The notes under the pieces: generated by a model
Told to the model about the DNA's origin: nothing
The model's database searches: none
The model's input: the letters and a program-made list of their open reading frames with translations, nothing else
NCBI GenBank assembly: GCA_028356795.1
Contig: JAOMVH010000012.1
Span: 1 to 32,889, forward strand
Reading direction: 5' to 3'
DNA from: Aliiglaciecola sp.
GTDB taxonomy: Bacteria > Pseudomonadota > Gammaproteobacteria > Enterobacterales > Alteromonadaceae
Length of the DNA stretch: 32,889 nt
Made by a program: the position numbers and the translations under genes
Shown here: positions 604 through 21,254 of the stretch, in pieces
Position numbering within the stretch: position 1 is the first letter of the stretch
How the letters are laid out: each line of letters opens with the position of its first letter

Positions 604-676
604 GTTCCAAAAATACGAATTTGCTGTTCCAGTGAAAATTAGCATTGGCGGTCCAAATGTGAGGAATAGTGGTCCA
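604..676 (+). repeat. Four direct GGTCCA-type arm sites, locus 1
   Basis: The hexamers GTTCCA (604), GTTCCA (626), GGTCCA (650) and GGTCCA (671) lie in the same orientation at steps of 22, 24 and 21 bp, about two helical turns. The same four-site array occurs at 15876-15946 and 21072-21140. This looks like an array of binding sites for a transposase or recombinase, comparable to the repeated TnsB sites in Tn7 ends. Which protein binds is not known. Confidence 0.65.
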
Positions 677-682
677 GATTGG

Positions 683-708
683 TCGGAATATACACCTATA
701 TATTCCGA
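683..708. repeat. Palindromic core, candidate recombination crossover site, locus 1
   Basis: Perfect 10-bp inverted arms (TCGGAATATA at 683-692 and TATATTCCGA at 699-708) flank a 6-bp centre CACCTA. The centre starts exactly 22 bp after the last direct site at 671. Arms of about 10 bp around a 6-8 bp spacer are the usual form of a tyrosine-recombinase core site. Related cores occur at 15953-15978 and 21147-21172. Confidence 0.55.
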
Positions 709-736
709 TAGAATTTACCACATAGCAGCGGTTAAA

Positions 737-786
737 CCGGACGCGATTCCATTTATTTTGGAACACGTATCGCGTTACTTTGGACC
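737..786 (-). repeat. Three inverted GGTCCA-type arm sites, locus 1
   Basis: CCGGAC (737), TGGAAC (759) and TGGACC (781) are inverted copies of the GGTCCA-type site at exact 22-bp steps, beginning 44 bp after the core centre at 693. The equivalent trio at 21201-21247 has the same 44-bp offset. The last site ends 48 bp before the stop codon of the divergent gene, so this is probably the left end of element 1. Confidence 0.6.
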
Positions 787-833
787 ACTCTGCATTTTAG
801 AAATCACTCACACATGATTTAAGTGCAATGATT

Positions 834-1778
834 TTAGAAATTTTTTAAACTCACAAGATGTTTTAGAAGTTCGTCATTCATGTTCAATCGCGTGAGCGAT
901 TCTTCGTCATAGTTAGCAAGCTGATTTGCGATTTGCTTAAGACTAAAATGTTTCAATAGAGCTAGAAATGCTAATTGGTTTTGCTCGTTTACAAAAGTTG
1001 GAAATTTCAGTTTCGCTGCATCTAATATTTGTTTGTAGCATGAACATGTAATTGAGAATACATCGAGTGAGAAGAGTTGTTGTATGTAGATAGGCAGGAT
1101 AACTGTTGACTCTAGACTCGTGCTTTTTCCAAGGCTTAAAGGCACTACTGTAAGATAATGTCCATTGGATTTATTACTAGTAAAAAAACGTGAAACACTA
1201 TTGATCAATCGAAATCCATACGGTAATGCTTTGGGATAAGTGACAGCGAACATACGCAAAATTAGCTTGGTTGCAGCCATATCAAATACGCTATCATTTA
1301 ACGCATGTAATTTTATTTCCTCGACTCGTCGTTTGATGAGTAGAGCACATAGTCCATCGACATCGCTTTTTGCCAGCAGCTTGAAGTCATCTTTGGGTTT
1401 AAAGTCATTGTGCTTTTTGTCTAACAACCGTTCTTGATAAGCAAATGGCAAACGACTGGTCAATGACAATAGCTCACTCATATTTAGCTGCGGGTTATCA
1501 AGTAACTCCCATAAAGGGTGAACCAGCAGTTTAGCAGTACCAGGATAGATGTCTTCTAACAATTTTACTTTCGATAGTTGCTTAATTGGTTCTCCCTTCA
1601 ACTTTTGCCTCATCATTCGAGGCTTCAATCCCGCTCTTGGATGAGTTATTCCAAGCTGCTTGCAAAACATTTCTGGGCTTGACTGACCAGAAATCCTCAT
1701 AATTTGGAGCGCCCAAAGATTGGCACTCAACCCCTTACATTCTGAACTCAGCGATAAATAACGACGTAAATCGTACAT
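834..1778 (-). CDS. Divergent accessory protein of the mobility module
   Basis: A 314-aa protein read away from the transposition genes. The start is ATG 1778-1776 because AGGAGG lies just upstream on that strand. The upstream in-frame ATG at 1817 has no such site. I do not recognise a domain. It is mostly helical and basic in appearance, with no obvious membrane segment. Its first ~100 residues align loosely with the 226-aa product of 21255-21935 in element 2 (RRYLSLSSECKGLSANLW against ERYSLVASDIQGMATSGL, then LSKVKLLEDIYPGT against LDKLKRIEQLFPQS). Both genes sit between the inverted arm sites and the small gene, in the same divergent orientation, so it is a genuine part of the module. A regulatory or target-choice role is possible, but this is a guess from position only. 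Confidence 0.7.
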   Translation of the reverse strand: MYDLRRYLSLSSECKGLSANLWALQIMRISGQSSPEMFCKQLGITHPRAGLKPRMMRQKLKGEPIKQLSKVKLLEDIYPGTAKLLVHPLWELLDNPQLNMSELLSLTSRLPFAYQERLLDKKHNDFKPKDDFKLLAKSDVDGLCALLIKRRVEEIKLHALNDSVFDMAATKLILRMFAVTYPKALPYGFRLINSVSRFFTSNKSNGHYLTVVPLSLGKSTSLESTVILPIYIQQLFSLDVFSITCSCYKQILDAAKLKFPTFVNEQNQLAFLALLKHFSLKQIANQLANYDEESLTRLNMNDELLKHLVSLKNF

Positions 1779-1973
1779 TTTGCCTCCTGATAAGTGATAT
1801 TTAAAACCGAGTACCACTTATTCAATCAATATCATCTGGTTAAAAAACATACAGTTAGCAAGGTTGCATTCCTTAAAACCTCGCATTTTGGCTACTTCAC
1901 TATTCAATTTAGTGAGCAATATTTGTACCGATAGAAAGGTTAGTCGCAATAAGTACCAAACTAAGGAGGACAA
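1779..1973. promoter_or_regulatory. Divergent intergenic region of the mobility module
   Basis: This ~195-bp gap separates the divergent gene from the small gene and must hold promoters for both directions. It is AT-rich. I could not define a confident -35/-10 pair. The AAGGAGG ribosome site of the small gene lies at about 1962-1968. The equivalent gap in element 2 is 21936-22100. Confidence 0.35.
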
Positions 1974-2225
1974 ATGAGCGATGAAGAGGTGCAACTATTA
2001 GCAAAGCAACTTGAGTCAGATCTATTGAAATTGTATGGCTCACCTGTGATCAGCGGTGGTGAATTACAAAGAGCGTTGGGATACAGAACAAAAGACGGGT
2101 TACGTCAAGCGATACTCAGAAATACGCTACCAGTAAAAGTATTCCAAATTCCAAAGCGACGCGGTTACTTTGCTCTAATTAAAGACGTCGCCAATTACTT
2201 AGCGCAGCGTGCACGAGATAAGTGA
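1974..2225 (+). CDS. Small basic protein at the head of the transposition operon
   Basis: An 83-aa protein with a strong AAGGAGG ribosome site 5-11 bases before the ATG. The middle (GELQRALGYRTKDGLRQAI) looks like a helix-turn-helix for DNA binding, and the end reads RRGYFALIKDVANYLAQ. The homologue in element 2 (22101-22383) keeps ESDL..LY.SP..SG..LQ.ALG and RRG..AL.KDVA. The conserved place, just before the transposase, suggests a regulator or DNA-bending cofactor. I do not recognise a named family. It is intact here, while the element 2 copy is frameshifted. Confidence 0.75.
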   Translation: MSDEEVQLLAKQLESDLLKLYGSPVISGGELQRALGYRTKDGLRQAILRNTLPVKVFQIPKRRGYFALIKDVANYLAQRARDK

Positions 2226-2277
2226 AGTGGATTGCTTGAAAGCATAAACAAACATTGGTTTATAAAATTGAGGAAAA

Positions 2278-3825
2278 ATGATGATACAACCTGAGAAAAT
2301 TCGAGAGATTATCCGAATCGATACAATATACCCAGACATGTCCAATCGACAGCTAGGAAAACTAACCAATTGCTCACACCAATCCGTTGGACGGGTGCTT
2401 AAGCGAGTCAAACTAAATGGAATTAGTCACGCTATTGCAATACAGCTTAAGAACAAAGAGCTTATAGAAAGCCTATACCCATGTATCCATATTTCAGATA
2501 AAAAATATCGTGAGCCTGACTACGACGAGCACGTAAAACAATCTTTGCTGAAAAAAGGCAAATCACGAACCCTTTTGTATTTGGAGTATAGAGCCAAAGC
2601 CCCCTCCACGGCATTAAGTAAGAGTCAGTATTTTTCGAAAGTACGTAAATTTTTGAAGACAACCAGATTAGCTATGCGACAAACTCATGTTGCAGGAGAT
2701 GTCGTGTACATCGATTACGCCGGAACAAAAGTTTTTTACAGCAAAGATGGGCAGAAGATTAGCGCTAAAGTATTTGTTGCAGTGCTCGGTGCTTCAAAAA
2801 AACTATTTGCATTTGCGACACCTGGTGAACGGACGAAAGATTGGATTAATGGGATTGTTGCAATGTTTAAAGCATTCGGTGGTGTCACAAGTATTGTTTC
2901 CATTGACAACGCAACAGCACTAGTAAGCAAACCAGGTCTCATTCCCGTTTTGGTTAAAAATATAGTGTTATTGGGTGAATTCTATCATTGTATTTTTGAC
3001 TCTTGTCGGGTCGCTTCACCACAGGATAAATCGTTGGCTGAGCTGGGGGTTAAGTGGGTAAAACAGCGAATACTAATACCAATGAATCACGATATGACAT
3101 TTTTTTCATTGGATGAGGTGAATGCTCACCTTTCAAAAAAAGTTGAAGAATTAAACAATTTGCCGCTACAAAAACTAAAAATTTCACGCAACGAATTGTT
3201 TGAACAGACGGACGGAAAACACTTGCGACCCTTGCCTAAAAAGCCTTTTGAAGCGGTTGATGTATTTAAAATGTTAATTGTGCCTGCGGATTATCACATT
3301 GAACACAATAAACACTTTTACTCTGTGCCGTATAAGCTGGCGCATGAAGAAGTGGAAGTGGTTGTAACAAACACAAATCTAAAAGTATTTCATCAACATC
3401 AACTCGAAGCTATACATAAGTTGAGCGAAGAGCTTAATGGATCAACAACCGTTCATGAGCATTTATCACCTGAGCACTCGGCTGAAGCGTTAAAAACAAA
3501 GGACGAATACATGAAATGGGCTAAGGGCGTTGGTCCTCTCACTCAAGTATTTGTGGAGAAACAATACGAGGTCGTCCGCAACCCCAAATCACGGGCTATT
3601 GGTAAACGCGTTCAAAACTTAATGCGCTTATGTCTAAATAAACCTCAAGAGCATATTGAGCAAGCATGTGAATATGCAATTGAAAACAACATGCCACCCA
3701 GTGAATTAGGTATGGTTTTTAAGATGTTAGAGCATTTAGAGACTAAGGCATCCGTATTAATGCCGCCCACTGCTCACAAAAATATTCGTGGCAAAAATTC
3801 ATTTGGAGGCAATTATGCTCATTAA
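2278..3825 (+). CDS. IS21/IstA-like DDE transposase, element 1
   Basis: A 515-aa protein with an N-terminal helix-turn-helix (MSNRQLGKLTNCSHQSVGRV, residues 21-40) and an RNase-H-fold catalytic core. The likely DDE triad is D146 (VYIDYAG), D210 (VSIDNAT) and E255 (PQDKSLAELGVKWV), matching IstA order and spacing. The downstream beta-barrel part contains HFYSVPYKL, the usual Mu/IstA C-terminal motif. It would cut and join element ends, helped by the ATPase encoded next. GAGGA precedes the ATG at 2278; an ATG at 2281 is equally possible. The 3' end overlaps the ATPase gene by 11 bp. It is strongly diverged from the element 2 copy, so the two elements are not recent duplicates. Confidence 0.9.
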   Translation: MMIQPEKIREIIRIDTIYPDMSNRQLGKLTNCSHQSVGRVLKRVKLNGISHAIAIQLKNKELIESLYPCIHISDKKYREPDYDEHVKQSLLKKGKSRTLLYLEYRAKAPSTALSKSQYFSKVRKFLKTTRLAMRQTHVAGDVVYIDYAGTKVFYSKDGQKISAKVFVAVLGASKKLFAFATPGERTKDWINGIVAMFKAFGGVTSIVSIDNATALVSKPGLIPVLVKNIVLLGEFYHCIFDSCRVASPQDKSLAELGVKWVKQRILIPMNHDMTFFSLDEVNAHLSKKVEELNNLPLQKLKISRNELFEQTDGKHLRPLPKKPFEAVDVFKMLIVPADYHIEHNKHFYSVPYKLAHEEVEVVVTNTNLKVFHQHQLEAIHKLSEELNGSTTVHEHLSPEHSAEALKTKDEYMKWAKGVGPLTQVFVEKQYEVVRNPKSRAIGKRVQNLMRLCLNKPQEHIEQACEYAIENNMPPSELGMVFKMLEHLETKASVLMPPTAHKNIRGKNSFGGNYAH

Positions 3826-4570
3826 TGAAAGTATTGAAAATAGACTTAAAGAGTTAAAGCTGGGCGGTATTCAAGCTGCACTTATGCAACAAAATGCGAG
3901 CGGTGCATTTTGTGAAATGTCTTTTTTGGAGCGTCTTGAACACTTGCTACGCGCACAAGTTGTCATGAATAAAAACAGGCGGATTACAACGTTGCAAAAA
4001 CAAGCAAACCTCCGTTGGCCGCAAGCTAATTTAGGTGACTTAGACTATTCACTTCAACCAAGCCTCAAAAAGCAAGTCATTGCTGAGCTTTTAGAGCTAA
4101 ATTGGGTGAGGAACGCGAATCATCTAATTTTAACTGGAGCTACCGGTACTGGAAAGACACACCTTGCGTGTGCATTTGCTAACGCAGCTATTCTTTGTGG
4201 GTTTCCAGTTAAGTTTTACAAATTCCAACATCTGTTGGCTGAGTTAATTGCAGCGGATCAAGAAAACGAGTTAGCAAAGCTTCGCAAAAGACTAGCTAGA
4301 TTTAAGGTACTTGTCATAGATGACTGGGGTATTTCCATGCTAGGTTCCGCGCAACGTCACATGCTTTTTGACTTAGTGGAGTCTCGTGATAAGCAAGCAT
4401 CCATGATCATTACGTCTCAGTACCCAAAAGAAGATTGGTACGACGCATTTGGTGATGCAACGATTGCAGAGTCAGTGCTAGATCGCATCGTGCATTCGTC
4501 TCATACATTAAATTTAGCTGGAATATCAATGCGCAAAGTAAATGGGTTGGGAGGAGAGTGCAATGAGTAA
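3815..4570 (+). CDS. IstB-like AAA+ transposition ATPase, element 1
   Basis: A 251-aa protein with Walker A GATGTGKTH, Walker B VLVIDDWG and the sensor stretch MIITSQYP, in IstB/DnaC order. IstB-type proteins form ATP-dependent filaments on target DNA and activate the DDE transposase. The start at 3815 is chosen for the GGAGG just upstream, inside the end of the transposase gene. The stop overlaps the next gene's start by 8 bp, which implies translational coupling. The element 2 homologue is exactly the same length (251 aa). Confidence 0.9.
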   Translation: MLINESIENRLKELKLGGIQAALMQQNASGAFCEMSFLERLEHLLRAQVVMNKNRRITTLQKQANLRWPQANLGDLDYSLQPSLKKQVIAELLELNWVRNANHLILTGATGTGKTHLACAFANAAILCGFPVKFYKFQHLLAELIAADQENELAKLRKRLARFKVLVIDDWGISMLGSAQRHMLFDLVESRDKQASMIITSQYPKEDWYDAFGDATIAESVLDRIVHSSHTLNLAGISMRKVNGLGGECNE

Positions 4571-5312
4571 TAAATCAAACCCCATTACCAATATGACTTC
4601 GATACTTGATGTGAGCGGATTCACTGAGTTTGATGTGCAAGTTCGCGATCAATTTATGCCCATCACACAAGGACTCTATCATCAGACTCTGCTGCTTGAA
4701 GATACGCCACAGCATTATTTGCAACAACACTATGATATTGACATTGAGAAGATTCAAAAATATAAGCTTGGCTTTTGCAATCGGTCACTGGTCACTAAAA
4801 TGCCACACCATCGATCTCAAGATGGTGTAAAAATTCGTAGCGCTTTATCTCGCTTTAAAATACTTCGCCCTAGCGGACATGAAAACTATCGCGGTTGCAT
4901 TACTGTTCCTATTTTTCACAAAGGGGAGATCGTTGCCTATTATGGAGAAAGAATTAGTCGTGTTCGCAGAGGTTCTTCGCAAAGTTATTGGCACCCTTTT
5001 GATAAACCAGCCATTTTTAACGTCGAGGGCGTTCCAGAGACAAAGACGCTTTTTATGTGCCAAAGCCCGTTATTGGCAATAAAAATGATGGAAGCTTTTG
5101 ACGACAAGGTTATTGCCACAGATTCAAATTTTAACATGTGTAGTAAAGACATTTCCTGTCTTGTAGACAAAGGTGTTGAAACATTGATTGTGGTAAAAAG
5201 TGTCGAACCTTCCAAATCGTGCATCGCAAGCTTGTCCAAATCGCTAGCAAAGTTCGGAATAACTTATCAGTCTTTCTCGTACACGCATGGTGGGCAATAT
5301 GGGCGAGCATAA
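4563..5312 (+). CDS. Degenerate DnaG-core/TOPRIM-like protein, element 1
   Basis: A 249-aa protein with start ATG 4563 behind GGAGGAG, overlapping the ATPase gene by 8 bp. Residues ~45-160 follow the N-terminal part of the DnaG catalytic core: a YL..HYDI....I.KYKLGF segment, then YRGCITVPIFHKGEIVAYYGERI, like the primase RI.FPI....G.V..FGGR motif. The TOPRIM strand that should read vvEG..DAL is MCQSPLLAI, so the catalytic glutamate is missing. The acidic motif is replaced by IVVKSVE. The element 2 homologue has lost the same glutamate. I infer a non-catalytic DNA-binding or adaptor protein specific to these elements; there is no zinc finger and no helicase domain. Confidence 0.7.
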   Translation: MSNKSNPITNMTSILDVSGFTEFDVQVRDQFMPITQGLYHQTLLLEDTPQHYLQQHYDIDIEKIQKYKLGFCNRSLVTKMPHHRSQDGVKIRSALSRFKILRPSGHENYRGCITVPIFHKGEIVAYYGERISRVRRGSSQSYWHPFDKPAIFNVEGVPETKTLFMCQSPLLAIKMMEAFDDKVIATDSNFNMCSKDISCLVDKGVETLIVVKSVEPSKSCIASLSKSLAKFGITYQSFSYTHGGQYGRA

Positions 5313-6267
5313 TTTCTTTAGTTTTTTCAACATTTATGAAAAACATTGTTTAGCAGAAGGGCAGTCGCCACGCACAGTTAAAACGAAACTGAGCAATCTG
5401 AAAATGTTCGTTAAATGGTGTATTGCTAACAATATCGATGAGATAAGAGAAGTCACAAAATCAATCGTTGAACAGTACAAAGCAGATTTAGCTGAGACAG
5501 TTAACCCGCGTAATAATCAACCTTTACGAAAAAACACGAAAAGACGACGTGTTACAGATGTCAGGACGTTCTTTAAAGAGTTAACTTATCTTGACTACTT
5601 TGAAGTCAACCCACTTGAAAACTTACGTTTACCCAAGCCGCAAAGAACGTTACCTACGGCATTTCTTACATTTGAAGATATTGAACAGGTTTTCCAAGCA
5701 ACAGTGCCTTATGGTGATACTGGCAAGCGAGACAGAGCAATACTGGAAACGTTTTACAGTACCGGCGCACGCAGAATGGAAGTGGCTAATTTGGATGTAA
5801 TGGACGTCAATTTCAAACAAAAGCAGATTTTTGTTACCGGCAAAGGCGATAAAGAACGTTTTATTCCTATTGCTGATAGAGCCTGTGATTGGATAAAGCA
5901 CTACGTAAACCATGTTCGCCCAAAACTTGTAGATAAAAAGTCAGGTTTTACATTATTTTTGGATAACCGAGGCATGAAGTACAGAGAAACGCAAATGAGT
6001 GACTTAGCAAAGAAGTATATCCTCAAAGCAGGTTTTGACGTTAACGCAGCATGTAATGTGTTCAGACATAGTGCAGCAACCCATATGCTTGAAAATGGCG
6101 CTGACATTCGTGAAATCCAACAATACCTGGGGCATTCTGATCTTTCAACGACGCAGGTTTATACTCATGTCACCAACGTGCAATTAAAGAAAACCTACCA
6201 AAAGTCACACCCCGCTGCGAGACAAACTAAAAGGCTGATCGCCACAGAGTTTGGTCGCTACAGGTAA
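5299..6267 (+). CDS. Tyrosine recombinase, element 1
   Basis: A 322-aa XerC/integrase-type protein. Residues ~1-100 form a SAM-like core-binding domain (GQSPRTVKTKLSNLKMFVKW). The catalytic residues are R158 (GARRMEV), K182 (GKGDKERF), R256, H279 (LGHSDLSTTQ) and nucleophile Y288 (VYTHV). The position that is His in the usual HxxR box is Asn253 (NVFRHSAATHML), and the element 2 copy has the same change. ATG 5299 is preferred to 5287 because GGTGGG lies before it. It overlaps the previous gene's end. It probably resolves cointegrates or integrates the element at the core sites at 683, 15953 and 21147. Confidence 0.88.
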   Translation: MGEHNFFSFFNIYEKHCLAEGQSPRTVKTKLSNLKMFVKWCIANNIDEIREVTKSIVEQYKADLAETVNPRNNQPLRKNTKRRRVTDVRTFFKELTYLDYFEVNPLENLRLPKPQRTLPTAFLTFEDIEQVFQATVPYGDTGKRDRAILETFYSTGARRMEVANLDVMDVNFKQKQIFVTGKGDKERFIPIADRACDWIKHYVNHVRPKLVDKKSGFTLFLDNRGMKYRETQMSDLAKKYILKAGFDVNAACNVFRHSAATHMLENGADIREIQQYLGHSDLSTTQVYTHVTNVQLKKTYQKSHPAARQTKRLIATEFGRYR

Positions 6268-6402: not shown

Positions 6403-8520
6403 ATGCAGCTATGCAAATTAGAAATCGAAAATTTCCGTCTTTTAAAATCATTTGAACTAAAGCTTGAAGATGAATTATCGCTAGTGATAGGCAAAAACAA
6501 CACTGGCAAAACGTCAATTCTATCGGCTCTCGAAAAATTGGTTGTTCAAACAGAGCGGTCGACAATTCACTACGAAGATTTCAACGTCGACACTAGAAGT
6601 TTTCTCGAAGATTATTTAAATGACAACTTATCCATTGTGCCTGAAGCTATATATATTCCTATAGGTATAAGTGCCAAACTATTTATGGAATATAACGAAG
6701 AAGACAATCTTGCTCAAATCAGTCCTTTAATTATGAATCTCGATCCGCAAGACAATAATATCGTGCTGATATTTGAATACAAGGCAACGTATGAAGACTT
6801 GGTGAATCTAAAAAAAGACTACATTGCGGAAGCTGAAAAATTTGACAACAATCCAAGACTTTTCCTCAAAGAGAATCATCGCGACTACTTTGGAACGATT
6901 TCACGTAAAAGTGTTTTGTACGGCGATGAGACACAATTTATTGATCTCAATAAAGAAAAAATAAACCTTCGGGACGTCTTATCGATACAGTTTATTAATG
7001 CCAAACGAAGCGTAACCAATAAACAGAACGACAAAGCGCTGTCCAACCAAACATCGACACTTTACAAGCAGCAAGATGAATCGGATGAGCATGAAGAAGC
7101 CTCTGGTGAATTCAAAAAGGCGCTCCGTGATACCGACGGTGTCTTGAGCGATGTGTACGCCAAGATGTTTGATGGTGTCATCAAGAAAGTGAATCAATTC
7201 GGCGGTGTTACACCATTGGAGACAGAGATCAAAATTTCATCATCTTTGCAGCACAGAGAGTTGTTGGATGGGAACACAACAGTTATGTATTCGCATGATT
7301 CACATGAGTTACCAGAGCATTACAATGGTCTAGGCTATATGAATTTGATTAGCATGATATTTGATATAGAAATGCTAATGAGTCGACTAAGACGTTCGGT
7401 ATTAGAAAAGCCAGCCGCGATAAATATTTTATTTATTGAAGAGCCAGAAGCTCATACCCACCCACAAATGCAGTACGTGTTCATCAAAAATATAAAACAG
7501 TTACTGCGTGAAAATAGGAACAGAGATGATGGCATCACTATTCATTTGCAGACCATAATAACGACGCACTCATCACATATCGTCGCTGAAAGTGACTTCA
7601 ACGATATTAAGTATCTTAAAAAGTCAGAAAGTCGTACTAACGTCACTGCCAAAAGCTTGCGCGATCTACAGTCTTCATATTCAAACCAAGAAGAACAACG
7701 TGATACACAGTTAAAGCAGGATTTTAAGTTTTTGAAGCAGTATTTGACTTTGAATAGGGCTGAATTATTTTTTGCTGATAAAGCTATTTTTATCGAAGGT
7801 GATACCGAGCGGGTAATTCTGCCAGCAATGATGAAGAAAATTGACCAAGATATAGCGTGCGACGACGCAGAACAGCCTCTTTTATCACAGAATATTTCAA
7901 TCGTTGAAGTCGGTGCTCATTCACAGATATTTGAAAAATTTATTGATTTCATAGGTATTAATTCGCTAATCATTACGGATATTGACAGTTTCAAACTAGT
8001 ACCAAAGAAAGATGAGCCTGAAAAAACTGAAAGAGAGAAGTGCCCTCCAAACGATGCTAATGCAAGGGATACCTCCAATGCATCATTAAAGTATTTTTTT
8101 GGCACTGATGCGGATTTAGCTTTTTTTAAGTCACTTGCGTTTGAGGGCAAAACGCTTTCAAAAACCACGAATGGTGAAGAGTGGAGACAAAATGAATGTG
8201 GCAATTTAAAAATAGTCTATCAGACTGAAGAAGAGGGGTTTTATGCCAGAAGCTACGAGGATGCATTTTTCCACATAAACAAATCATTGTTGAACACCGG
8301 TATTTCAGGGTTTCCATCGCTTACTAACAAGCATCTTGAAAAATATATGAGTAATGAAATTGATGCTTATGAATTTGCTGAAAAAGCAGTTGGAAGTAAG
8401 CCATCCCTTGCAATCGAGGTTTTGCTCAATAGCGAAAAAGACGAAAACAACCTGGAGTTTTCAAATTGGAAAGTGCCTGCTTATATCAAGGAAGGACTAT
8501 TATGGCTTCGCAGAAAATAG
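6403..8520 (+). CDS. gajA: Gabija GajA: OLD-family ATPase-TOPRIM endonuclease
   Basis: A 705-aa protein. The ABC-type ATPase has Walker A GKNNTGKTS (residues 30-38), a split signature region, and Walker B LFIEEPEAHTHP near residues 342-353. An OLD-family TOPRIM follows (FIEGDTERVILPA near 460 and ITDIDSF near 523). Gabija GajA is a nucleotide-sensing DNA nickase that forms a large complex with GajB. Depletion of nucleotides during phage infection releases its nuclease activity. It is longer than Bacillus GajA (about 580 aa), with extra C-terminal sequence. The gene overlaps gajB by 19 bp, the classic two-gene arrangement. Gabija identity rests on the OLD plus UvrD pair. It is the first cargo after the recombinase. 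Confidence 0.88.
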   Translation: MQLCKLEIENFRLLKSFELKLEDELSLVIGKNNTGKTSILSALEKLVVQTERSTIHYEDFNVDTRSFLEDYLNDNLSIVPEAIYIPIGISAKLFMEYNEEDNLAQISPLIMNLDPQDNNIVLIFEYKATYEDLVNLKKDYIAEAEKFDNNPRLFLKENHRDYFGTISRKSVLYGDETQFIDLNKEKINLRDVLSIQFINAKRSVTNKQNDKALSNQTSTLYKQQDESDEHEEASGEFKKALRDTDGVLSDVYAKMFDGVIKKVNQFGGVTPLETEIKISSSLQHRELLDGNTTVMYSHDSHELPEHYNGLGYMNLISMIFDIEMLMSRLRRSVLEKPAAINILFIEEPEAHTHPQMQYVFIKNIKQLLRENRNRDDGITIHLQTIITTHSSHIVAESDFNDIKYLKKSESRTNVTAKSLRDLQSSYSNQEEQRDTQLKQDFKFLKQYLTLNRAELFFADKAIFIEGDTERVILPAMMKKIDQDIACDDAEQPLLSQNISIVEVGAHSQIFEKFIDFIGINSLIITDIDSFKLVPKKDEPEKTEREKCPPNDANARDTSNASLKYFFGTDADLAFFKSLAFEGKTLSKTTNGEEWRQNECGNLKIVYQTEEEGFYARSYEDAFFHINKSLLNTGISGFPSLTNKHLEKYMSNEIDAYEFAEKAVGSKPSLAIEVLLNSEKDENNLEFSNWKVPAYIKEGLLWLRRK

Positions 8521-10400
8521 ATATTGATTCCATTTCGGTTGAATCCAAGGCGGTTGTCAAGCTGGCTCGTCAGGGCGCGAACTTTTTGTTGAGCGGCGGT
8601 GCAGGTAGCGGAAAGACATACTCTTTGGTTGAAGTTTTAGGTGTCGTCCTGGCAGACTATCCTACTTTATCAGTCGCTTGTATCACATACACTAACGCCG
8701 CCGTCGACGAGATTGAAAGGAGAATTCATGGCGATAACCTCTCTATTTCAACAATACATGATTTTCTTTGGAGCAATATTAAGCATTATCAAAATGAGCT
8801 AAAAGAAACGCTGGTTGAGTTGATCAATGACGAAGAGCAAACAAAATTAAAGTCTGTGGATGGAAAGCAAATCAATGAAGATTACTTCAATAACTGTGAA
8901 AAGATACGCTACAAAGAATATTTGAAATTAGCCGAAGGTATTATTTCTCACGACGAAGTGATTGTAGTCGCTGCCAAGATGTATGAGAAATATGAAAAAC
9001 TCTGCGACATTACAAAAGATAAATATCCGTTCATATTTGTGGATGAGTACCAAGATACAGATCCTCTCGTGGTTGATATTTTTCTTGAGTCGTTCGAAAA
9101 ATCGAATAAAAGATGCGTCATTGGCTTTTTTGGTGATTCCATGCAATCTATCTATGAGAATAGCGTCGGTGACTTAGGGAAGTACCTTGAAACAGAACCT
9201 CTCAAAGTTCATGAAGTGCTCAAACGGCAAAATCGTAGAAATCCGCTAAATGTGATTGATCTGGCGAATAAGCTGAGAAACGACAATCTAGAGCAGCAAC
9301 CATCAGATGATATTAGCGCTCCTAACATGGACCCTACAGGAAGGGTGAAGTTGGGGGAGGCAAAGTTTTTGTATTCTAGAAACGCAGATTTAATATCTAC
9401 TAGGAGTTATCTAAACTGGGATTTTAGCGATACCAATACAGTAAAAGAACTCAACCTTACTCATAATCTCATTGCAAGTAAGGCCAATTTCCCTGAGTTA
9501 ATGCGGGTATATGACGGGGACAAAATTCGCGAATACGTAAAAAATAAAATTCGTAAGCCTTTAAAGAATGAGCAACCAGAGTTTGACTGTGAAGGTTTGA
9601 CATTAGACCAAGTTATTAGGCATTTAGGCAATCCAGCCGCAACCCCAATGCAGCGCAAATATATCGAAAAATATCCCCGCTATTTTGAACTAGCGAAATC
9701 ATTGCCTTATAAATCTATAGCTGACAATTATGTGGAAAAAGAACAGCTTCTGGATGACAAAAAAAATGTTGCAGGTGCAGATGATAAGCCAAGCTCTAAC
9801 CGTGACGATTTGATAAAGCATCTGTTCAAAATTGAACATCTAATTAGGCTCTACGCAAAAAAACAGTTCAATCAGTTTATCCAGTTAACCGATTTTTCCG
9901 TATCATCAGTTGAGCGTAAACAAGAACTCTATAATGCGATTTCATCTTTTTCTATTGACGAAACGACAACAATTGGCGAAGCCATTGTTATTGCTAATGA
10001 ATTGGGACTTGTTATCAAAGATGAGAAATTGCAGCGTTTTTCTGATAGAAATCCTTATTTGTTTCAGCAAGTGTGCGACATACCTTACGCAGAAGTGACG
10101 AATTTGTTCGATTATTTGGAAGGTTACTCACCGTTCTCTACTCAACATAAAACAAAAGGTGCAGAATTCCCTAATGTGTTGGTTGTGCTAGATAATGGTC
10201 GATGGAATTCGTATAACTTTGAGTATTTATTTGAACAAATGGGTAACCAAAGTGTAATAGCACGCTCAGAAAAACTATTTTATGTTTGCTGCACGAGAGC
10301 GATGGAAAAACTCGCGGTTTTTTTCCCAAATCCAAGTGATAAAGCGCTCGTTACTGCGAAAAGCTGGTTTGGACCAGATAATGTGATAAATCTAGATTAA
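8502..10400 (+). CDS. gajB: Gabija GajB: UvrD/Rep-like helicase
   Basis: A 632-aa superfamily 1 helicase-like protein. Visible motifs are Walker A SGGAGSGKTY (31-40), Ia (CITYTNAAVDEIERRI), II (FVDEYQDTDPL near 177), III (GFFGDSMQSIYEN), IV-like KRQNRRNP, V (QHKTKGAEFPNVLVV) and VI (FYVCCTRAMEKLAVF). The start is ATG 8502, with AAGGA upstream inside the gajA end. GajB is thought to sense DNA ends or ssDNA and activate GajA. A terminal (LTADAIN-like) region is not evident. Confidence 0.88.
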   Translation: MASQKIDIDSISVESKAVVKLARQGANFLLSGGAGSGKTYSLVEVLGVVLADYPTLSVACITYTNAAVDEIERRIHGDNLSISTIHDFLWSNIKHYQNELKETLVELINDEEQTKLKSVDGKQINEDYFNNCEKIRYKEYLKLAEGIISHDEVIVVAAKMYEKYEKLCDITKDKYPFIFVDEYQDTDPLVVDIFLESFEKSNKRCVIGFFGDSMQSIYENSVGDLGKYLETEPLKVHEVLKRQNRRNPLNVIDLANKLRNDNLEQQPSDDISAPNMDPTGRVKLGEAKFLYSRNADLISTRSYLNWDFSDTNTVKELNLTHNLIASKANFPELMRVYDGDKIREYVKNKIRKPLKNEQPEFDCEGLTLDQVIRHLGNPAATPMQRKYIEKYPRYFELAKSLPYKSIADNYVEKEQLLDDKKNVAGADDKPSSNRDDLIKHLFKIEHLIRLYAKKQFNQFIQLTDFSVSSVERKQELYNAISSFSIDETTTIGEAIVIANELGLVIKDEKLQRFSDRNPYLFQQVCDIPYAEVTNLFDYLEGYSPFSTQHKTKGAEFPNVLVVLDNGRWNSYNFEYLFEQMGNQSVIARSEKLFYVCCTRAMEKLAVFFPNPSDKALVTAKSWFGPDNVINLD

Positions 10401-13537: not shown

Positions 13538-15508
13538 ATGGACTTTAGTGGCTCAGCAGCAATAACTGACAATGGTATTAAAAAACATTTCAAGAACATT
13601 GACCCGTGGAAGGCGATATTTGAACTAGCCTGGAATGGTCTCGATGCAAATGCGACAAAAGTCAGCGTAAATATCGCAACAAATGAAATGGAAGGTACTG
13701 AAGCGGTTGATGTATTCGACAATGGTGACGGTATTGATTTTTGGAATATTAAGGATAATTTTGCCAAGTTTAACGATTCTTCTAAATCAGACGTCGATCA
13801 GCATGGTAGCCACGGGCGTGGGAGATTATCTTTTTTTAGAATTGCTGAGAACGCGACTTGGTTTACAAAGCACAATGGCGAAAATGCTAGAATCAAGATT
13901 TGCGCTTCTGCCATAAAGAAATTTGATGGAACTTCAATAGATGACTCCTTGCAACATGCTGCGTTGGTAAAAGAATCCAAAGGTACTATTGTACTTTTGA
14001 ACAACTGTGAAACTAATTTACCACCCACAGAAAATTTAATGCCGAAATTTACCACAGAGTTTGGCTGGTATTTGGCATTAAACAGTCGAAAATCCTTACT
14101 TTTAAATGGCAATCAAGTTCCTGTACCAAAGCATGACTTACATGAATTTACCGTTAGCATCGACGACCACAACTTCAGCTTAAAAATTATTAGGTGGCAT
14201 GAGAAACCTACCTCGGAGAAGTCATATTATTATTTGCTGAGTTGCGACAGTAAAATTCTTCATAAAAAGCTGAGTAGCTTCAACAACAAAGGGGATTTTT
14301 GGGTCAGCGTATATGTAGAATCGACTTGGAATGATGATTTTGTTGAAGAACAGCCTGATATGTTCAACACGGACAAAAATACCTGCGAGTCACCCACATA
14401 CAAAAACTTGGTGTCGCAGATCCAATCCCTTGTTCAAAATGTCTATGATGAATTTTTGAGACGGTTCGCTGAAGAGCAGATAGATAAGTTTGAAGAAGAA
14501 GGTGTATTTCCGAACTATCAACATGAAACTAAAGAATATGCAGACTGGAGGCTGAATAATACCAAGAGACTTGTCACTGAAATCTACATAGCTGATCCGC
14601 AGGTATTCAAAAAACTAAATCTGAAACAAAAGAAAATAATTGTTAGACTACTGGATAAAATAACAGTATCAGACCATAATGATAGTCTGTTTGAAGTCTT
14701 AAATGAAGTGCTTGATTTAGAACCTGAAGAAATGATGACCTTTGCAGAGCAAATAAAAAAATCACAACTAGAGCACATCATAAATACGATTGAGGTGTTG
14801 CATCGTCGTGAGGCTTCAGTGCATTGCATACGAGAAGTAATGCGTAATCACTATAAAGACGTGCTAGAAACGCCTGATCTACAGCTGGTCATTGAAAACA
14901 ATACATGGTTGTTTGGTGCTAAATACGAAACGCTTGGTGCAGAAGAAAATGACTTCCAGTCAATTGCCAAAAATCTAAGAGACACGCTCCCTAAAATTAA
15001 TGATGTAAATGAAGAAGATCTAGAAGACGCGTCTCAAATAGACGGTGTCAGAAAGCAGGTAGATTTGTTTCTGGCAAGGAAAGTGCCGAGAGTTAACAGC
15101 TTAGGTAAACGCTGTTTTCATTGTGTAGTCGTTGAAATCAAGCGACCTGGTATTGCGTTAAATAAAAGGCATCTCGAACAATTACAAGAGTATGCTGATA
15201 TTTTGACCGTACACCCAGAATTTAGCAGCCAGCATATGACTATCGATTTGGTCCTCGTTGGCAGAAAAATTTCTGGGCAAGATGCACGTATTCCAAGGGA
15301 GCTAAAAACCAGTGCTGATAAAGGTGAGCCAGGTTTGGTCAGTGATGATGGCAGGGTAAAATGTTTTGTTAAGACTTGGGAAACGATACTCGATGAATTC
15401 GACTTGGCTAATGATTATCTTCTTTCTAACTTAAACTCCAAGAAACAGGACTTATCTGGTTATTCAACTTCAGAGCTTGTGAAGAAGCTTCAGAGGCCGA
15501 GCCATTAA
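13538..15508 (+). CDS. GHKL ATPase fused to a Shedu-like PD-(D/E)XK nuclease, copy 1
   Basis: A 656-aa protein with GAGGTT-poor but AAGGA-containing leader before ATG 13538. The N-terminal Bergerat-fold ATPase has ELAWNGLDANA (E29, N33, D36), DNGDGI (61-66) and the lid HGSHGRGRLSFF (89-100), most like MORC/Hsp90-type ATPases. Helical middle parts follow (QKKIIVRLLDKITVSDHN near 364-381). The C-terminal part has VIENNTWLFG (451-460), QVDLFL with D509, and VVEIKRPG with E533 and K535, as in the Shedu (DUF4263) nuclease of the PD-(D/E)XK fold. No membrane segment. A second copy at 28185-30170 is about 60-65% identical by eye. An ATP-gated DNA-cleaving defence protein is the likely role; this is inference from the domains and the island. 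Confidence 0.75.
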   Translation: MDFSGSAAITDNGIKKHFKNIDPWKAIFELAWNGLDANATKVSVNIATNEMEGTEAVDVFDNGDGIDFWNIKDNFAKFNDSSKSDVDQHGSHGRGRLSFFRIAENATWFTKHNGENARIKICASAIKKFDGTSIDDSLQHAALVKESKGTIVLLNNCETNLPPTENLMPKFTTEFGWYLALNSRKSLLLNGNQVPVPKHDLHEFTVSIDDHNFSLKIIRWHEKPTSEKSYYYLLSCDSKILHKKLSSFNNKGDFWVSVYVESTWNDDFVEEQPDMFNTDKNTCESPTYKNLVSQIQSLVQNVYDEFLRRFAEEQIDKFEEEGVFPNYQHETKEYADWRLNNTKRLVTEIYIADPQVFKKLNLKQKKIIVRLLDKITVSDHNDSLFEVLNEVLDLEPEEMMTFAEQIKKSQLEHIINTIEVLHRREASVHCIREVMRNHYKDVLETPDLQLVIENNTWLFGAKYETLGAEENDFQSIAKNLRDTLPKINDVNEEDLEDASQIDGVRKQVDLFLARKVPRVNSLGKRCFHCVVVEIKRPGIALNKRHLEQLQEYADILTVHPEFSSQHMTIDLVLVGRKISGQDARIPRELKTSADKGEPGLVSDDGRVKCFVKTWETILDEFDLANDYLLSNLNSKKQDLSGYSTSELVKKLQRPSH

Positions 15509-16031: not shown

Positions 16032-17222
16032 GTGGCTTGCACACATATGAATGGTAGGATCTACGATCCAAACTTGGGTCGATTCCTTCAGGCTGATCCG
16101 CATATTCAAGCACCGAAGAATAGCCAGAACTATAACCGTTATAGCTATGTGTTGAATAACCCGTTGAGTTATACCGATCCGAGTGGGTATTTTTTCAAGA
16201 AACTATGGCAGGCGACAACCGGAAATATTCTTAGAGCAATCGCAAAAGTACCGATTTTAAACACAGCAATAAATGTAGGGTTGAATTTTATTCCTGGTTG
16301 CCAAGTTTGGTGTAGTGCTGCATTTAGTGCTGCTACTACTTATGCAGTAACAGGAAGTTTAAAGGCGGCGTTTACTTCAGGAGCAATTACTGCCGCTACA
16401 GCATATGCATTTTCTCAAATTGGCTCTCATTTTGATGGTCTCGATGGTGTGAATGGCGGAACGTATAACTTTGGCGGAAATATGCTAACTGGAGGAGAGG
16501 TAGCTCAACAAATAGCGGCACATGCGGTTGTCGGTGGTATTTCATCTGATCTTCAAGGTGGTAAATTTGGTCATGGTTTCTTTAGTGCGGGTGTCACTAA
16601 AGGAATTGGCGGAGCATTTCTTCCGGGCGGCGATAACTTAACTACAGGTGAAATCGCTCAAGGTACGGTTGTATCGGCAATTATTGGTGGTACTGCATCT
16701 AAAATATCAGGTGGTAAATTTGCCAATGGTGCTCAGACGGGAGCTTTCCAGTTTCTGTTTAATCAAGCGGGTAGAGCTTTAGCTGAAAGACGAGCAAGGC
16801 GAGGTCCAATCGGGCCTGCTGCCGCTAGGTCTCCTGAGGAGCAAGCTGCAATATTTGCCAACTTAGGTATTACTGCTGGAGGTGTCGTGATCTGTGTAGC
16901 AACCGGATGCACTGGCTTACCAGCTTACCTGATGGCAACCGCAACCGTATTATCTGCTGATCAGATTTTAAGTATTACCGACGGGTCAAGCCCAGTTACT
17001 TTTACCCTTCAGGAATTGGGGATATCAGAGGGAAATGCGGTAATTGTGCGTGATTCGGCTGTTCTTGCCTTGGATGTTGTTTATGTTCCTAGACGAATAA
17101 ATGCGGCTTTCAGATCAACTAGTAATGTTACGCCTTTAACTGATAAGCTTTCAGACTTTCTGGCAGTCGGCAGCAGTGCAAACTCGATCAACTCCTTATC
17201 ACAAAGTGCAGGATCTAATTAA
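16032..17222 (+). CDS. Orphan Rhs C-terminal tip with variable toxin domain, copy 1
   Basis: The frame opens with GTG 16032 and contains the Rhs core end HMNGRIYDPNLGRFLQADPH and NYNRYSYVLNNPLSYTDPSG, then a glycine/alanine-rich hydrophobic stretch with two GGxxSDLQGGKFGHGF / ASKISGGKFANGA repeats. A variable C-terminus (about residues 250-396) follows. Complete Rhs proteins are over 1,300 aa; here everything before HMNG is missing and there is no ribosome site, so it is probably silent until recombined with a full rhs gene. The C-terminal toxin is not recognised. The membrane gene just downstream is the likely immunity gene. The break point is the same residue as in the tip at 30218. Confidence 0.75.
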   Translation: MACTHMNGRIYDPNLGRFLQADPHIQAPKNSQNYNRYSYVLNNPLSYTDPSGYFFKKLWQATTGNILRAIAKVPILNTAINVGLNFIPGCQVWCSAAFSAATTYAVTGSLKAAFTSGAITAATAYAFSQIGSHFDGLDGVNGGTYNFGGNMLTGGEVAQQIAAHAVVGGISSDLQGGKFGHGFFSAGVTKGIGGAFLPGGDNLTTGEIAQGTVVSAIIGGTASKISGGKFANGAQTGAFQFLFNQAGRALAERRARRGPIGPAAARSPEEQAAIFANLGITAGGVVICVATGCTGLPAYLMATATVLSADQILSITDGSSPVTFTLQELGISEGNAVIVRDSAVLALDVVYVPRRINAAFRSTSNVTPLTDKLSDFLAVGSSANSINSLSQSAGSN

Positions 17223-17232
17223 TGGTGCCAAT

Positions 17233-17667
17233 ATGAAAAGGTTGATCTTCCTAGTTTGTTTAGTTTTTGTGCCAATTTATTCAATTTTTAAATACGTTTC
17301 TCTACCTAGTATTAGTGATGTTGTTTTTGAAGAGATTAAAGGGGAGTTAATTTGTTCGTCAAAGAATAATCACTATCAATTTTTACTTAAAGGAATTGAG
17401 CAGACGTACATAGTAAGGGTAAAGGAATCATGTGATGACAAAACGCTTCCTCTTAGGGATAAGTATTATGCGGGCATTGTCGGTGATAAGGTATGGATTT
17501 TGAGTGTTAACCAAATTGAAATCGTCAACTACGAAACATCACTGGAACTTGCAAAAAAAGACATACTATACTTTCTGTTTTTTTGGTTTTCTTGCGGTGT
17601 GATTTTTTATTGCATAATAGCCATTAAAGGAAAGTTCACTAGCAAAGAAAAAATCAAAAATATTTAA
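17233..17667 (+). CDS. Candidate immunity protein, two-helix membrane protein
   Basis: A 144-aa protein starting at ATG 17233, 10 bp after the rhs stop. An N-terminal hydrophobic segment (LIFLVCLVFVPIYSIF) and a C-terminal one (ILYFLFFWFSCGVIFYCIIAI) flank a ~90-residue extracytoplasmic part with paired cysteines. A membrane protein right after an Rhs toxin tip is the usual place of its immunity gene, so a membrane- or periplasm-acting toxin is plausible. It is followed by a clear terminator. No family recognised. Confidence 0.55.
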   Translation: MKRLIFLVCLVFVPIYSIFKYVSLPSISDVVFEEIKGELICSSKNNHYQFLLKGIEQTYIVRVKESCDDKTLPLRDKYYAGIVGDKVWILSVNQIEIVNYETSLELAKKDILYFLFFWFSCGVIFYCIIAIKGKFTSKEKIKNI

Positions 17668-17708: not shown

Positions 17709-17804
17709 TACTTCGTTTGATATCTCGGATTAAGGCCCCACCTCTGAATTAGGCTGGGAAAGAAAACGCTTGGTCGAATTTTATTTGTGAATGTAGGGAG
17801 TTCA

Positions 17805-19007: not shown

Positions 19008-19039
19008 CGAATTGATCAACATGCCAGGGAGAAAATAAA

Positions 19040-19858
19040 ATGTCTGAACTAAGTGACGCAGGCGATAAAAAAATGCCAGAGAGCGGCAAGGTAGCAAAAA
19101 TATCGCGCGGCGCTTTGCAGGCAGTTGGCGGTGCAGTGCCCTTTGCCGGAGGTGTTTTTTCCGCTATCGCTGGTGCTTGGTCGGAAGGCGAACAAGACAA
19201 AGTTAATCGCTTTTTTGATGAATGGGTACGAATGCTCCAAGACGAGCTAAAAGAGAAAGAGCAGACCATCATTGAAATCATGGCGCGCCTCGACCTTCAG
19301 GATGAGGCTATTTCAGAAAGAATTACCAGCGCAGAGTACCAATCTTTAGTTAAGAAAACGTTTAGGGAATGGTCTGGTGCGGAGAGTGAATCGAAACGTG
19401 TATACATTCGAAACATTTTATCAAACGCTGCTGCTTCAAAGGTTTCCAGCGATGATGTCATACGCATGTACATTGACTGGATTAATCAATATTCAGAACT
19501 GCATTTCCAAGTCATTGGTGCCATTTACAATGCTGATGGTATCTCTAGAGGTGAAGTTTGGCGTAAAATCGGCAAAGGAGCAGTTAGAGAAGACTCCGCA
19601 GATGCAGACTTGTACAAACTTCTGTTCAGGGATTTAAGCACTGGCGGCATTATCCGACAACATCGAGAAATTGACCGTTTTGGTAATTTCAGGCCGAAGC
19701 AAACTTCTCGACGCCCAAAAGGGAGTGGACCAAAGCAGCCGGTTTCTGCGTTTGATGAAAACGAAGGGTATGATTTAACGGAGCTAGGTAAACAATTTGT
19801 GCATTACGCCATGTCAGAATTACCGCTCAAAATTGAATTTCAAGAAGAGAGTCAGTGA
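19040..19858 (+). CDS. TIR-associated protein with glycine-rich hydrophobic segment
   Basis: A 272-aa protein with GGGAG before ATG 19040. Residues ~24-48 (ALQAVGGAVPFAGGVFSAIA) form a glycine-rich hydrophobic segment, followed by a long charged helix (EWVRMLQDELKEKEQTIIEI) and a helical domain (SESKRVYIRNILSNAAA). The C-terminal part seems winged-helix-like. The arrangement suggests a sensor or membrane-active partner for the TIR protein. No named family is recognised, and the pair does not look like Thoeris ThsA/ThsB because no SIR2 domain or membrane NAD enzyme is present. Confidence 0.6.
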   Translation: MSELSDAGDKKMPESGKVAKISRGALQAVGGAVPFAGGVFSAIAGAWSEGEQDKVNRFFDEWVRMLQDELKEKEQTIIEIMARLDLQDEAISERITSAEYQSLVKKTFREWSGAESESKRVYIRNILSNAAASKVSSDDVIRMYIDWINQYSELHFQVIGAIYNADGISRGEVWRKIGKGAVREDSADADLYKLLFRDLSTGGIIRQHREIDRFGNFRPKQTSRRPKGSGPKQPVSAFDENEGYDLTELGKQFVHYAMSELPLKIEFQEESQ

Positions 19859-19881
19859 TTTTGAAGGAGTCTCTCCAACTA

Positions 19882-19930
19882 CGAGTGATATCAACAGTAA
19901 CGCCCACTAATGAAGTATCACTCGTTTATT
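19882..19930 (+). terminator. Possible terminator after the TIR pair
   Basis: CGAGTGATA (19882-19890) and TATCACTCG (19916-19924) form a perfect 9-bp stem with a 25-base loop, followed by TTTATT. The long loop lowers confidence. Confidence 0.4.
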
Positions 19931-21140: not shown

Positions 21141-21146
21141 AATTCA

Positions 21147-21247: not shown

Positions 21248-21254
21248 ATAAATG

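What the first reader, a model, noticed from the sequence alone, without database searches (positions are those of the whole stretch)
834..6267. Hybrid mobility module joining an IS21-like DDE/AAA pair to a tyrosine recombinase
Six genes in fixed order (divergent gene; small protein, IstA-like, IstB-like, TOPRIM-like, tyrosine recombinase) occur twice, here and at 21255-26632, with matching overlaps of 8 bp between ATPase and TOPRIM-like genes. The copies are strongly diverged, so the order is under selection and not a recent duplication. By analogy with Tn402/Tn5053 (DDE, ATPase, TniQ, resolvase), the recombinase could resolve cointegrates; alternatively it integrates the element and the DDE pair has another task. 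IS21 itself has no such partners.
Basis: partly seen in the sequence, partly recalled or inferred. Interest (0 to 1): 0.85.

Follow-up and report, generated by a model that had tools for sequence, protein, structure and literature searches.

The report
Mobile elements that swap Rhs toxin-tips
The twice-seen six-gene block is the engine of a mobile DNA element that appears to insert inside a bacterial weapon gene (rhs), give it a new toxin end plus immunity and anti-phage genes, push the old toxin end aside, and also jump to unrelated places with a second enzyme system.

Summary
In detail: the six genes occur twice in one order, strongly diverged, with 8-bp ATPase/TOPRIM overlaps. In 33 of 35 modules with enough downstream DNA, module and cargo end at an rhs 3' fragment (toxin tip) starting near one conserved codon site; in 12 module-bearing genomes this holds for 14 of 15 module integrases and 2 of 93 others. 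A sister class (primase-like protein plus XerC-like recombinase, no IstA/IstB) shows the event in E. coli: a 7,928-bp insertion inside full-length rhs brings a new tip and immunity gene and displaces the old pair. IstA/IstB use other ends: in a Pseudomonas plasmid and one chromosome the element sits outside rhs with inverted ends and a short target duplication, while in rhs loci, both window copies included, these ends lie abutted with a 2-nt spacer. Best reading: one circle, two ways to be cut; the recombinase opens it at att inside rhs (tip swap), IstA/IstB at the abutted ends. A base-level empty rhs site for the IstA/IstB class is missing; TOPRIM's role and the order of steps are inferred; no activity was tested.

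The parts
650..790 (.). IS21-type right end / left end junction of element 1: RE ends 694, 2-nt spacer CC (695-696), LE starts 697; GGTCC repeats at 650+, 671+, 782-
   Evidence: 12 of 16 inverted match, 0 of 60 shuffles; repeats; coordinates
834..1817 (-). divergent gene 1, function unknown; partly confident helical model
   Evidence: no Pfam; no PDB match at E <= 0.001
1974..2225 (+). PrtN-like small protein 1 (candidate directionality factor or regulator; inferred)
   Evidence: Pfam PyocinActivator below its cut-off
2278..3825 (+). IstA-like DDE transposase 1; D146, D210, E255 invariant in 14 members
   Evidence: matches IS5376 transposase in PDB, E 1.8e-8
3788..4570 (+). IstB-like AAA+ ATPase 1
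4563..5312 (+). DnaG_N/TOPRIM-like protein 1 (partner of the recombinase by co-variation)
5287..6267 (+). tyrosine recombinase 1 (XerD-like)
6403..10400 (+). cargo: Gabija pair GajA (6403-8520), GajB (8466-10400)
   Evidence: PADLOC 1.2e-295 and 3.1e-225
13538..15508 (+). cargo: HATPase-fold protein next to att; homologue at 28185-30170
   Evidence: 53.6% identical to the second
16044..16069 (+). att junction A (CATATGAATGGTAGGATCTACGATCC): element end joined to rhs codons HMNGR-YDP
16044..17222 (+). displaced rhs 3' fragment A (toxin tip)
17176..17667 (+). candidate immunity gene A (by position only)
17787..20961 (+). cargo: TIR protein 17787-19007 and further ORFs
21072..21248 (.). IS21-type RE/LE junction of element 2: three GGTCC (+) then three GGACC (-); RE ends 21158, spacer GG, LE starts 21161
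   Evidence: 12 of 16, 0 of 60 shuffles
21255..21935 (-). divergent gene 2
22089..22316 (+). PrtN-like 2 (C-terminus lost to a change of frame)
22480..24123 (+). IstA-like 2 (DDE residues kept)
24105..24878 (+). IstB-like 2
24871..25692 (+). TOPRIM-like 2
25673..26632 (+). tyrosine recombinase 2
26693..28151 (+). cargo: AbiEi/AbiEii
28185..30170 (+). cargo: HATPase-fold protein 2
30215..30240 (+). att junction B
30215..31384 (+). displaced rhs 3' fragment B (toxin tip)
31439..31888 (+). candidate immunity gene B (by position only)

Best explanation
The block is the mobility core of a mobile element whose single circular form can be opened at two places. (1) The tyrosine recombinase, with the primase-like TOPRIM protein as partner (inferred), recombines the att of the circle with the same short conserved sequence inside a full-length rhs gene, at the start of the Rhs core end motif. 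The circle enters in the order att - new tip - immunity - divergent gene/module - defence cargo - att, so the rhs core is now followed in frame by the new tip, and the old tip plus its immunity gene become an orphan downstream. Repeated entry builds tandem arrays, as in this window. (2) IstA/IstB recognise a separate pair of IS21-type ends that lie abutted in the rhs-integrated form and, by inference, in the circle; when they act there, the element linearises between these ends and inserts at unrelated sites, such as plasmids, with a short target duplication. Shown by comparison of natural alleles: tip-swapping insertion for the sister class in E. coli; linear insertion outside rhs for the IstA/IstB class, at base level in one plasmid and at locus level in one chromosome. 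Shown by sequence: att-start tips and abutted ends in the window. Inferred: that the recombinase does step 1 in the IstA/IstB class, the circle as intermediate, the order of the steps, the role of TOPRIM, PrtN-like and divergent proteins, and the benefit to the host.
For: Tip boundary: 33 of 35 unique IstA/IstB modules with more than 1.1 kb downstream are followed on the same strand, within 13 kb, by an rhs-end fragment that starts 1-21 aa after a stop. Nine att-start tips: best identity to other rhs copies of the same genus 0.47-0.53 in the 150 bp left of the site, 0.81-0.93 in the 150 bp from the site on. Control: 14 of 15 module integrases against 2 of 93 other integrases in the same 12 genomes, Fisher p 1.3e-14; 0 of 10 viral-contig recombinases. 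Specificity: nearest recombinase neighbour has the same att class in 34 of 34; on the 29 complete modules recombinase 28, TOPRIM 26, IstA 22, IstB 18 of 29. Event seen: E. coli JNE120442 against 21F61 and JNEC-KY177: 7,928-bp net insertion inside rhs, aligned flanks 99.7-100% (one 174-bp stretch near the 5' end of rhs does not align), overlap of 15 bp with one mismatch, old tip + WP_001558831.1 + SymE WP_097759259.1 now downstream of xerC. IstA/IstB ends: pPUV-9 against pPUV-4, 24.7-kb insert, target repeat of 6-8 bp, inverted ends TGTAGGG, target not rhs; L054 (G347), 7,869 bp, TSD CAAGC, ends TGGCGGC, flanks 215 bp apart in G233. Abutted ends: 2-nt spacer in 21 of 30 regions against 0.29 in shuffles, p 3.8e-6; both window junctions 12 of 16, 0 of 60 shuffles. 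DDE residues invariant in 14.
Against: No nucleotide-level empty rhs site was found for the IstA/IstB class itself; the precise empty/occupied pair is from the sister class without IstA/IstB, and there the occupied allele has a frameshifted primase gene and the insert also carries a second, orphan tip-immunity pair. For L054 the empty relative is 88-89% identical and does not align right at the ends, so its target duplication rests on the occupied copy alone. In G053 the attached tip start is closer (0.91) to the rhs of a relative than the orphan is (0.85), so 'orphan = native, attached = foreign' was not supported there. One att-start tip (L114) has no recombinase hit in the stretch read and one (L106) only a 194-aa piece. 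Inverted-arm symmetry of att is weak overall: 5 of 34 above the 95% null. Two of 35 modules (L138, L174) have no tip. Most abutted-end junctions are not individually significant: 10 of 30 score 11 or more of 16; in the blind terminal-repeat scan spurious scores reached that of L054. No right end was found for L014. The two circular records could be collapsed tandem repeats. No activity data exist.
Confidence: 0.8

Rival explanations
1. Orphan tips come from homologous recombination between rhs genes (the published view for Rhs); the module is only a passenger in a hotspot of the genome.
For: Long shared core between full-length and orphan rhs is the proposed substrate in Salmonella (PMC3967940, passages; likewise PMC10539506, passages). 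Many orphan tips without a module keep core sequence upstream of the site (L103, L107, L111, L113, L115, L116, L123). SCU-111 and R12 differ by one unit with about 1 kb of overlap. L114 is an att-start tip without a recombinase hit.
Against: Module-linked tips start at the site without core homology to the left; 14 of 15 against 2 of 93; the E. coli insertion has only a 15-bp overlap.
Confidence: 0.1
2. Tn402-like replicative transposon: IstA/IstB transpose and form cointegrates, and the tyrosine recombinase resolves them at att.
For: In the two linear insertions att lies inside the element like a resolution site. IS21 IstA acts on single and tandem elements (PMC10122671, passages).
Against: It does not explain why att coincides with the rhs tip boundary, nor the sister class that has the recombinase and TOPRIM but no IstA/IstB and inserts into rhs. 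Resolution could still be a side job.
Confidence: 0.07
3. IstA/IstB alone move the element and target rhs loci; the recombinase only excises or is a relic.
For: Two linear insertions with target duplication.
Against: Both lie outside rhs; rhs copies show abutted ends and an att boundary instead; recombinase type, more than IstA type, tracks the att class.
Confidence: 0.03

Closest known systems
Displaced cdiA-CT/cdiI and rhs-CT orphan modules (PMC3150448; PMC4927057; passages read)
   Same: Tandem orphan toxin/immunity pairs downstream of a full-length gene. PMC4927057 proposed that new modules integrate into cdiA and push the old ones downstream, and noted integrase and transposase genes between them.
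   Different: In the passages seen, no element, recombinase, att site, terminal repeats or occupied/empty pair is given; IstA/IstB and the second way to move are absent.
IS21 family (IstA/IstB; PMC10122671, passages)
   Same: IstA DDE and IstB AAA+ homologues; terminal inverted repeats with subterminal repeats; short target duplication; abutted ends resemble IS21 tandems.
   Different: Four further core genes, kb-scale cargo, an rhs tip and att inside the element.
Tn402/Tn5053 transposons (recalled)
   Same: DDE transposase plus AAA ATPase plus a recombinase.
   Different: Tyrosine, not serine, recombinase; no TniQ recognised; site is in rhs.
Integrons (recalled)
   Same: Works like one in that a tyrosine recombinase adds new units next to a fixed 5' part and older ones are pushed downstream.
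   Different: Each unit carries its own recombinase and fuses a new protein end in frame.
Rhs-associated integrases of bee gut bacteria (PMC5727410, passages)
   Same: Integrase-like genes near rhs genes, suggested to help capture Rhs sequences.
   Different: Role left open there; not compared here by sequence.
Recombinase-associated immunity arrays (rAID) of Bacteroidales (PMC12247911, passages)
   Same: A tyrosine recombinase beside arrays of orphan immunity genes against T6SS toxins.
   Different: Immunity genes only in the passages seen; no toxin tips fused to a gene, no IstA/IstB.

Membership tests
IS21 family | IstA DDE transposase with IstB ATPase | tested here: met
IS21 family | terminal inverted repeats with subterminal repeats and short target duplication | tested here: met
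   pPUV-9 at base level; L054 from the occupied copy, empty site at locus level; in the window only abutted ends are seen
IS21 family | only istA and istB between the ends | tested here: not met
Tn402/Tn5053 | TniQ and serine resolvase | tested here: not met
   recombinase is Phage_integrase; divergent gene has no Pfam match and no PDB match at E <= 0.001
Tyrosine-recombinase integrative element | own tyrosine recombinase and a short shared site at both junctions with an empty allele | tested here: met
   for the sister class in E. coli
Tyrosine-recombinase integrative element | same, for the IstA/IstB class | tested here: inconclusive
   site and boundary found; L050 against L097 shows a module-free rhs locus only at locus level
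Tyrosine-recombinase integrative element | excised circle | tested here: inconclusive
   NZ_CP072857.1 and NZ_CP055112.1, sister class; assembly collapse possible
Integron | fixed integrase outside the units | tested here: not met
   each unit has its own recombinase; attC sites were not searched for
GInt / RIT (several tyrosine recombinases in a row; recalled) | three adjacent tyrosine recombinases | tested here: not met
   one recombinase per module

The most novel reading that the evidence does not exclude
A new class of mobile element in which two unrelated recombination systems work on one circle with two different sets of ends: a tyrosine recombinase that fuses new toxin tips in frame into rhs genes and an IS21-type transposase that carries the same circle, cut elsewhere, onto plasmids. 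Together with its primase-type sister class (also found beside a cdiA-like gene in L063) it would be a general engine that diversifies polymorphic toxins and spreads anti-phage defence genes with them.
Probability: 0.65. Interest if true: 0.93.

Novelty: categorically new. Interest (0 to 1): 0.88.

Why it matters
How Rhs and CDI weapons keep gaining new toxin ends is a long-standing question, in the papers seen here mostly answered by homologous recombination. Here is a dedicated machine with a definable site, natural empty/occupied allele pairs in E. coli for its sister class, and a second transposition mode that can load the same package onto plasmids. The packages couple attack (tip), self-protection (immunity) and, in this window, anti-phage defence (Gabija, AbiE, TIR). 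The sites are short and can be tested with a reporter.

Tried and rejected
Cointegrate resolution as the main role: rejected because the likely recombinase site is the rhs boundary. Native/foreign test of tips in one genus: did not support the model. Inverted arms of att as a signature: striking by eye in L013, L014, L045, but only 5 of 34 beat the null. Blind search for terminal repeats plus target duplication: too noisy; only L054 and L162, which have outside support, are used. Right end of L014: not found. Empty site for L047: the relatives found did not align. Viral contigs: 10 recombinases, none in a module and none near rhs ends in the stretches held. Fold of the divergent protein: mean pLDDT 65.8, no PDB match at E <= 0.001. 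The common start codon of the tips is partly built in, because the rhs-end profile was cut to start there; the independent support is and the stop within 21 aa upstream.

Rows dropped before counts: of 47 IstA/IstB rows, 10 repeats of the same module and 2 with under 1.1 kb downstream (L172, L185) were dropped, leaving 35; L048 was counted as positive because its tip lies in the adjoining locus L060. Of 36 att rows, L141 (sister class) and L169 (profile start shifted) were left out, leaving 34. One search used the 29 modules with all four genes; its count for the recombinase (28 of 29) differs (34 of 34) because of that subset. Rows with TOPRIM and recombinase but no IstB in the stretch: L053, L059, L183 with a tip, L186 without, L189 a repeat of L053. 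Sister-class rows: 22, of which 14 have at least 1.2 kb downstream; the profile finds an rhs end in 8 of the 14 (two of them share one hit in L140), and misses tips that can be read by eye in L057.
Full report
WHAT IS IN THE WINDOW. The six-gene block is there twice, as described, and diverged (21-49% protein identity). IstB and TOPRIM overlap by 8 bp in both copies with the internal start codons. A partial third copy is on contig C21 of the same genome, which is incomplete (59.6%); the window is the whole of contig C24. The blocks are followed by defence genes: Gabija (GajA 1.2e-295, GajB 3.1e-225) after copy 1, AbiEi/AbiEii after copy 2; a TIR protein lies between.

THE RHS BOUNDARY. After each block and its cargo comes an ORF that begins at the conserved end motif of Rhs proteins (HMNGRIYDPxLGRF; window 16044 and 30215) although no rhs core precedes it. 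The same holds in Pseudoalteromonas arctica (L013) and Alteromonas halophila (L014). In L013, L050 and L052 a full-length rhs gene with its own tip lies upstream of the block, so the order is: rhs core - tip 1 - immunity - divergent gene - block - cargo - tip 2 (L050 has no divergent gene or PrtN-like hit).

SURVEY. A TOPRIM profile hit 48 of 394 genomes of the order, 102 of 369 of the class and 25 of 295 of the family at a stricter limit; many hits in the first two are ordinary DnaG-length proteins. I asked for 90 stretches around such and related hits, one of them twice, and annotated them, with earlier loci, by profiles of the six genes. Of 37 unique IstA/IstB modules, 35 had more than 1.1 kb downstream; 33 of the 35 have an rhs-end fragment on the same strand within 13 kb. 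The two without are L138 and L174. The upstream stop lies 1-21 aa before the fragment. For nine att-start tips the best identity to other rhs copies of the same genus is 0.47-0.53 in the 150 bp left of the site and 0.81-0.93 to the right; seven of the nine belong to a module, L106 has only a piece of a recombinase and L114 none. As a control, in 12 genomes chosen because they carry modules, 14 of 15 module integrases and 2 of 93 other integrases have an rhs end downstream.

WHO RECOGNISES WHAT. The tips fall into four att classes by their first codons (HMN 20, YMQ 7, YNY 5, YYK 2). The nearest recombinase relative has the same class in 34 of 34. On the 29 complete modules the nearest relative by recombinase, TOPRIM, IstA and IstB has the same class in 28, 26, 22 and 18 (permuted mean about 10.7). 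Distances of recombinase and TOPRIM correlate at 0.89, IstA and IstB at 0.92, cross pairs at 0.47-0.52. Shared descent of genomes contributes to all of these numbers. I read them as two functional pairs.

THE EVENT ITSELF, IN THE SISTER CLASS. Other loci have a related arrangement without IstA/IstB: a protein of about 1,000 aa with CHC2 zinc finger and TOPRIM (DnaG_N hit in two of the three tested), a recombinase of the same family, and often HTH and SymE genes. It sits beside rhs ends in L056-L058 and, in L063, beside a CdiA-like gene (CdiA named by recall). In one search the rhs-end profile finds a downstream end in 8 of the 14 sister rows with at least 1.2 kb of DNA; it misses some that can be read by eye. 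In E. coli 53 of 5,426 genomes carry a close relative of its recombinase, median 4 places per genome; strain R12, not in that list, also has one, so 53 is a lower bound. I read four E. coli carriers, all at the same rhs locus. Strain JNE120442 carries one such element; strains 21F61 and JNEC-KY177 have the same locus without it. The aligned flanks match at 99.7-100%, apart from a 174-bp stretch near the 5' end of rhs that does not align; the net insertion is 7,928 bp inside the full-length rhs gene, and the two matches overlap by 15 bp at codons DPIGL (one mismatch on the left copy). The old tip, its immunity gene WP_001558831.1 and the SymE gene WP_097759259.1 lie behind xerC in the occupied allele; the insert brings the newly fused tip with a gene behind it, plus a second orphan tip-immunity pair, and its primase gene is annotated as frameshifted. 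This is a direct view of a tip swap by insertion. SCU-113 has two such recombinase units in the 41 kb read.

CIRCLES. PLSDB holds two small circular records made of sister-class units: Lonsdalea populi 11,289 bp (two tip-immunity pairs) and Shigella flexneri SWHIN_104 8,758 bp. The latter is 99.0% identical over 8.7 kb to SCU-113. They fit excised circles, but tandem repeats collapsed by an assembler would look the same.

WHAT ISTA/ISTB DO. IncP-2 plasmid pPUV-9 of P. aeruginosa has a 24.7-kb insert that is missing from pPUV-4, with flanks 100% and 99.97% identical. It contains the block, an ABC-three-component cluster, a Fic gene, and an rhs tip with a DUF4279 gene, and it lies in a hypothetical gene, not in rhs. 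Target repeat: CAAGGGGG (8 bp at most; AGGGGG if the ends are TG/CA). Ends TGTAGGG in inverted orientation, with shared subterminal repeats. The only transposase annotated in it is IstA (the gene table is incomplete). Three plasmid records, pPUV-9 included, match the 20.9-kb query around it at 100%, which I count as one event. A second case is L054: 7,869 bp, ends TGGCGGC, target repeat CAAGC in the occupied copy; the flanks lie 215 bp apart in G233 at 88-89% identity, so the empty site is shown at locus level only.

ABUTTED ENDS. If one circle serves both systems, the IS21-type ends must lie back to back in the rhs-integrated form. L109, L110, L052 and the module-free rhs locus L117 show right end - 2 nt - left end behind the immunity gene. 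In the window the junctions are at 694/697 and 21158/21161, each 12 of 16 matching, 0 of 60 shuffles; the second sits between three forward and three reverse GGTCC repeats. Over 30 regions the best junction has a 2-nt spacer in 21, against 0.29 expected (p 3.8e-6), though only 10 of 30 score 11 or more. At the two linear insertions the left end borders flanking DNA instead. In IS21 tandems such back-to-back ends form a strong promoter (PMC10122671, passages).

MECHANISM AND LIMITS. One circle, opened at att by the recombinase (into rhs, tip swap) or at the abutted ends by IstA/IstB (elsewhere). Shown by alleles: tip-swapping insertion in the sister class, linear insertion in the IstA/IstB class. 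Inferred: circle, order of steps, TOPRIM as partner, PrtN-like protein as switch, divergent protein unknown. A base-level empty rhs site for the IstA/IstB class is missing; L050 against L097 shows only that a relative has the rhs locus, with the same neighbouring gene, without the block.

LITERATURE. Ten full-text searches (PMC open-licence library only, ranked listings often capped) listed no title or abstract start that names such an element. PMC4927057 (passages) proposed integration of CT/immunity modules into cdiA with displacement and noted integrases and transposases in the arrays; the general idea is theirs. PMC5727410 (passages) saw integrases near rhs. PMC3967940, PMC10539506 and PMC6336857, all passages, explain swaps by homologous or illegitimate recombination; PMC11278526 (passages) describes displaced cdiA ends in Proteus. 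PMC3482391 (passages) noted recombinases beside polyimmunity loci, PMC12247911 (passages) recombinase-linked immunity arrays. PMC10293859 was seen in listings only. Most subscription papers are not in the library. I rate it categorically new because no known family passes its membership test whole, while the displacement idea itself is prior.

Noticed in passing
   Followed up: partly
L136 (NZ_CP072857.1) and L137 (NZ_CP055112.1): Small circular 'plasmids' that are tip-immunity-SymE-HTH-primase-XerC units.
   Followed up: partly
L117 12208-12436; also L118, L100: IS21-type end sequences behind immunity genes of rhs loci in which no module was found: possible scars of earlier elements.
   Followed up: partly
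window 13538-15508 and 28185-30170: Homologous HATPase-fold proteins directly before att in both units, no PADLOC hit; possible new defence gene.
   Followed up: no
window 22089-22316: PrtN-like gene of copy 2 is cut short by a change of frame.
   Followed up: no
G862:C1:3216431-3240049: A run of eight rhs-end fragments on one strand over 24 kb, apparently an orphan tip array.
   Followed up: no
L160 (NZ_CP098773.1) 12918-16547: A second rhs locus on the Alteromonas plasmid: orphan tip start beside a short recombinase fragment.
   Followed up: no
L157 and other Leptospira plasmids: Recombinase and CHC2 relatives on Leptospira plasmids, outside Pseudomonadota.
   Followed up: no
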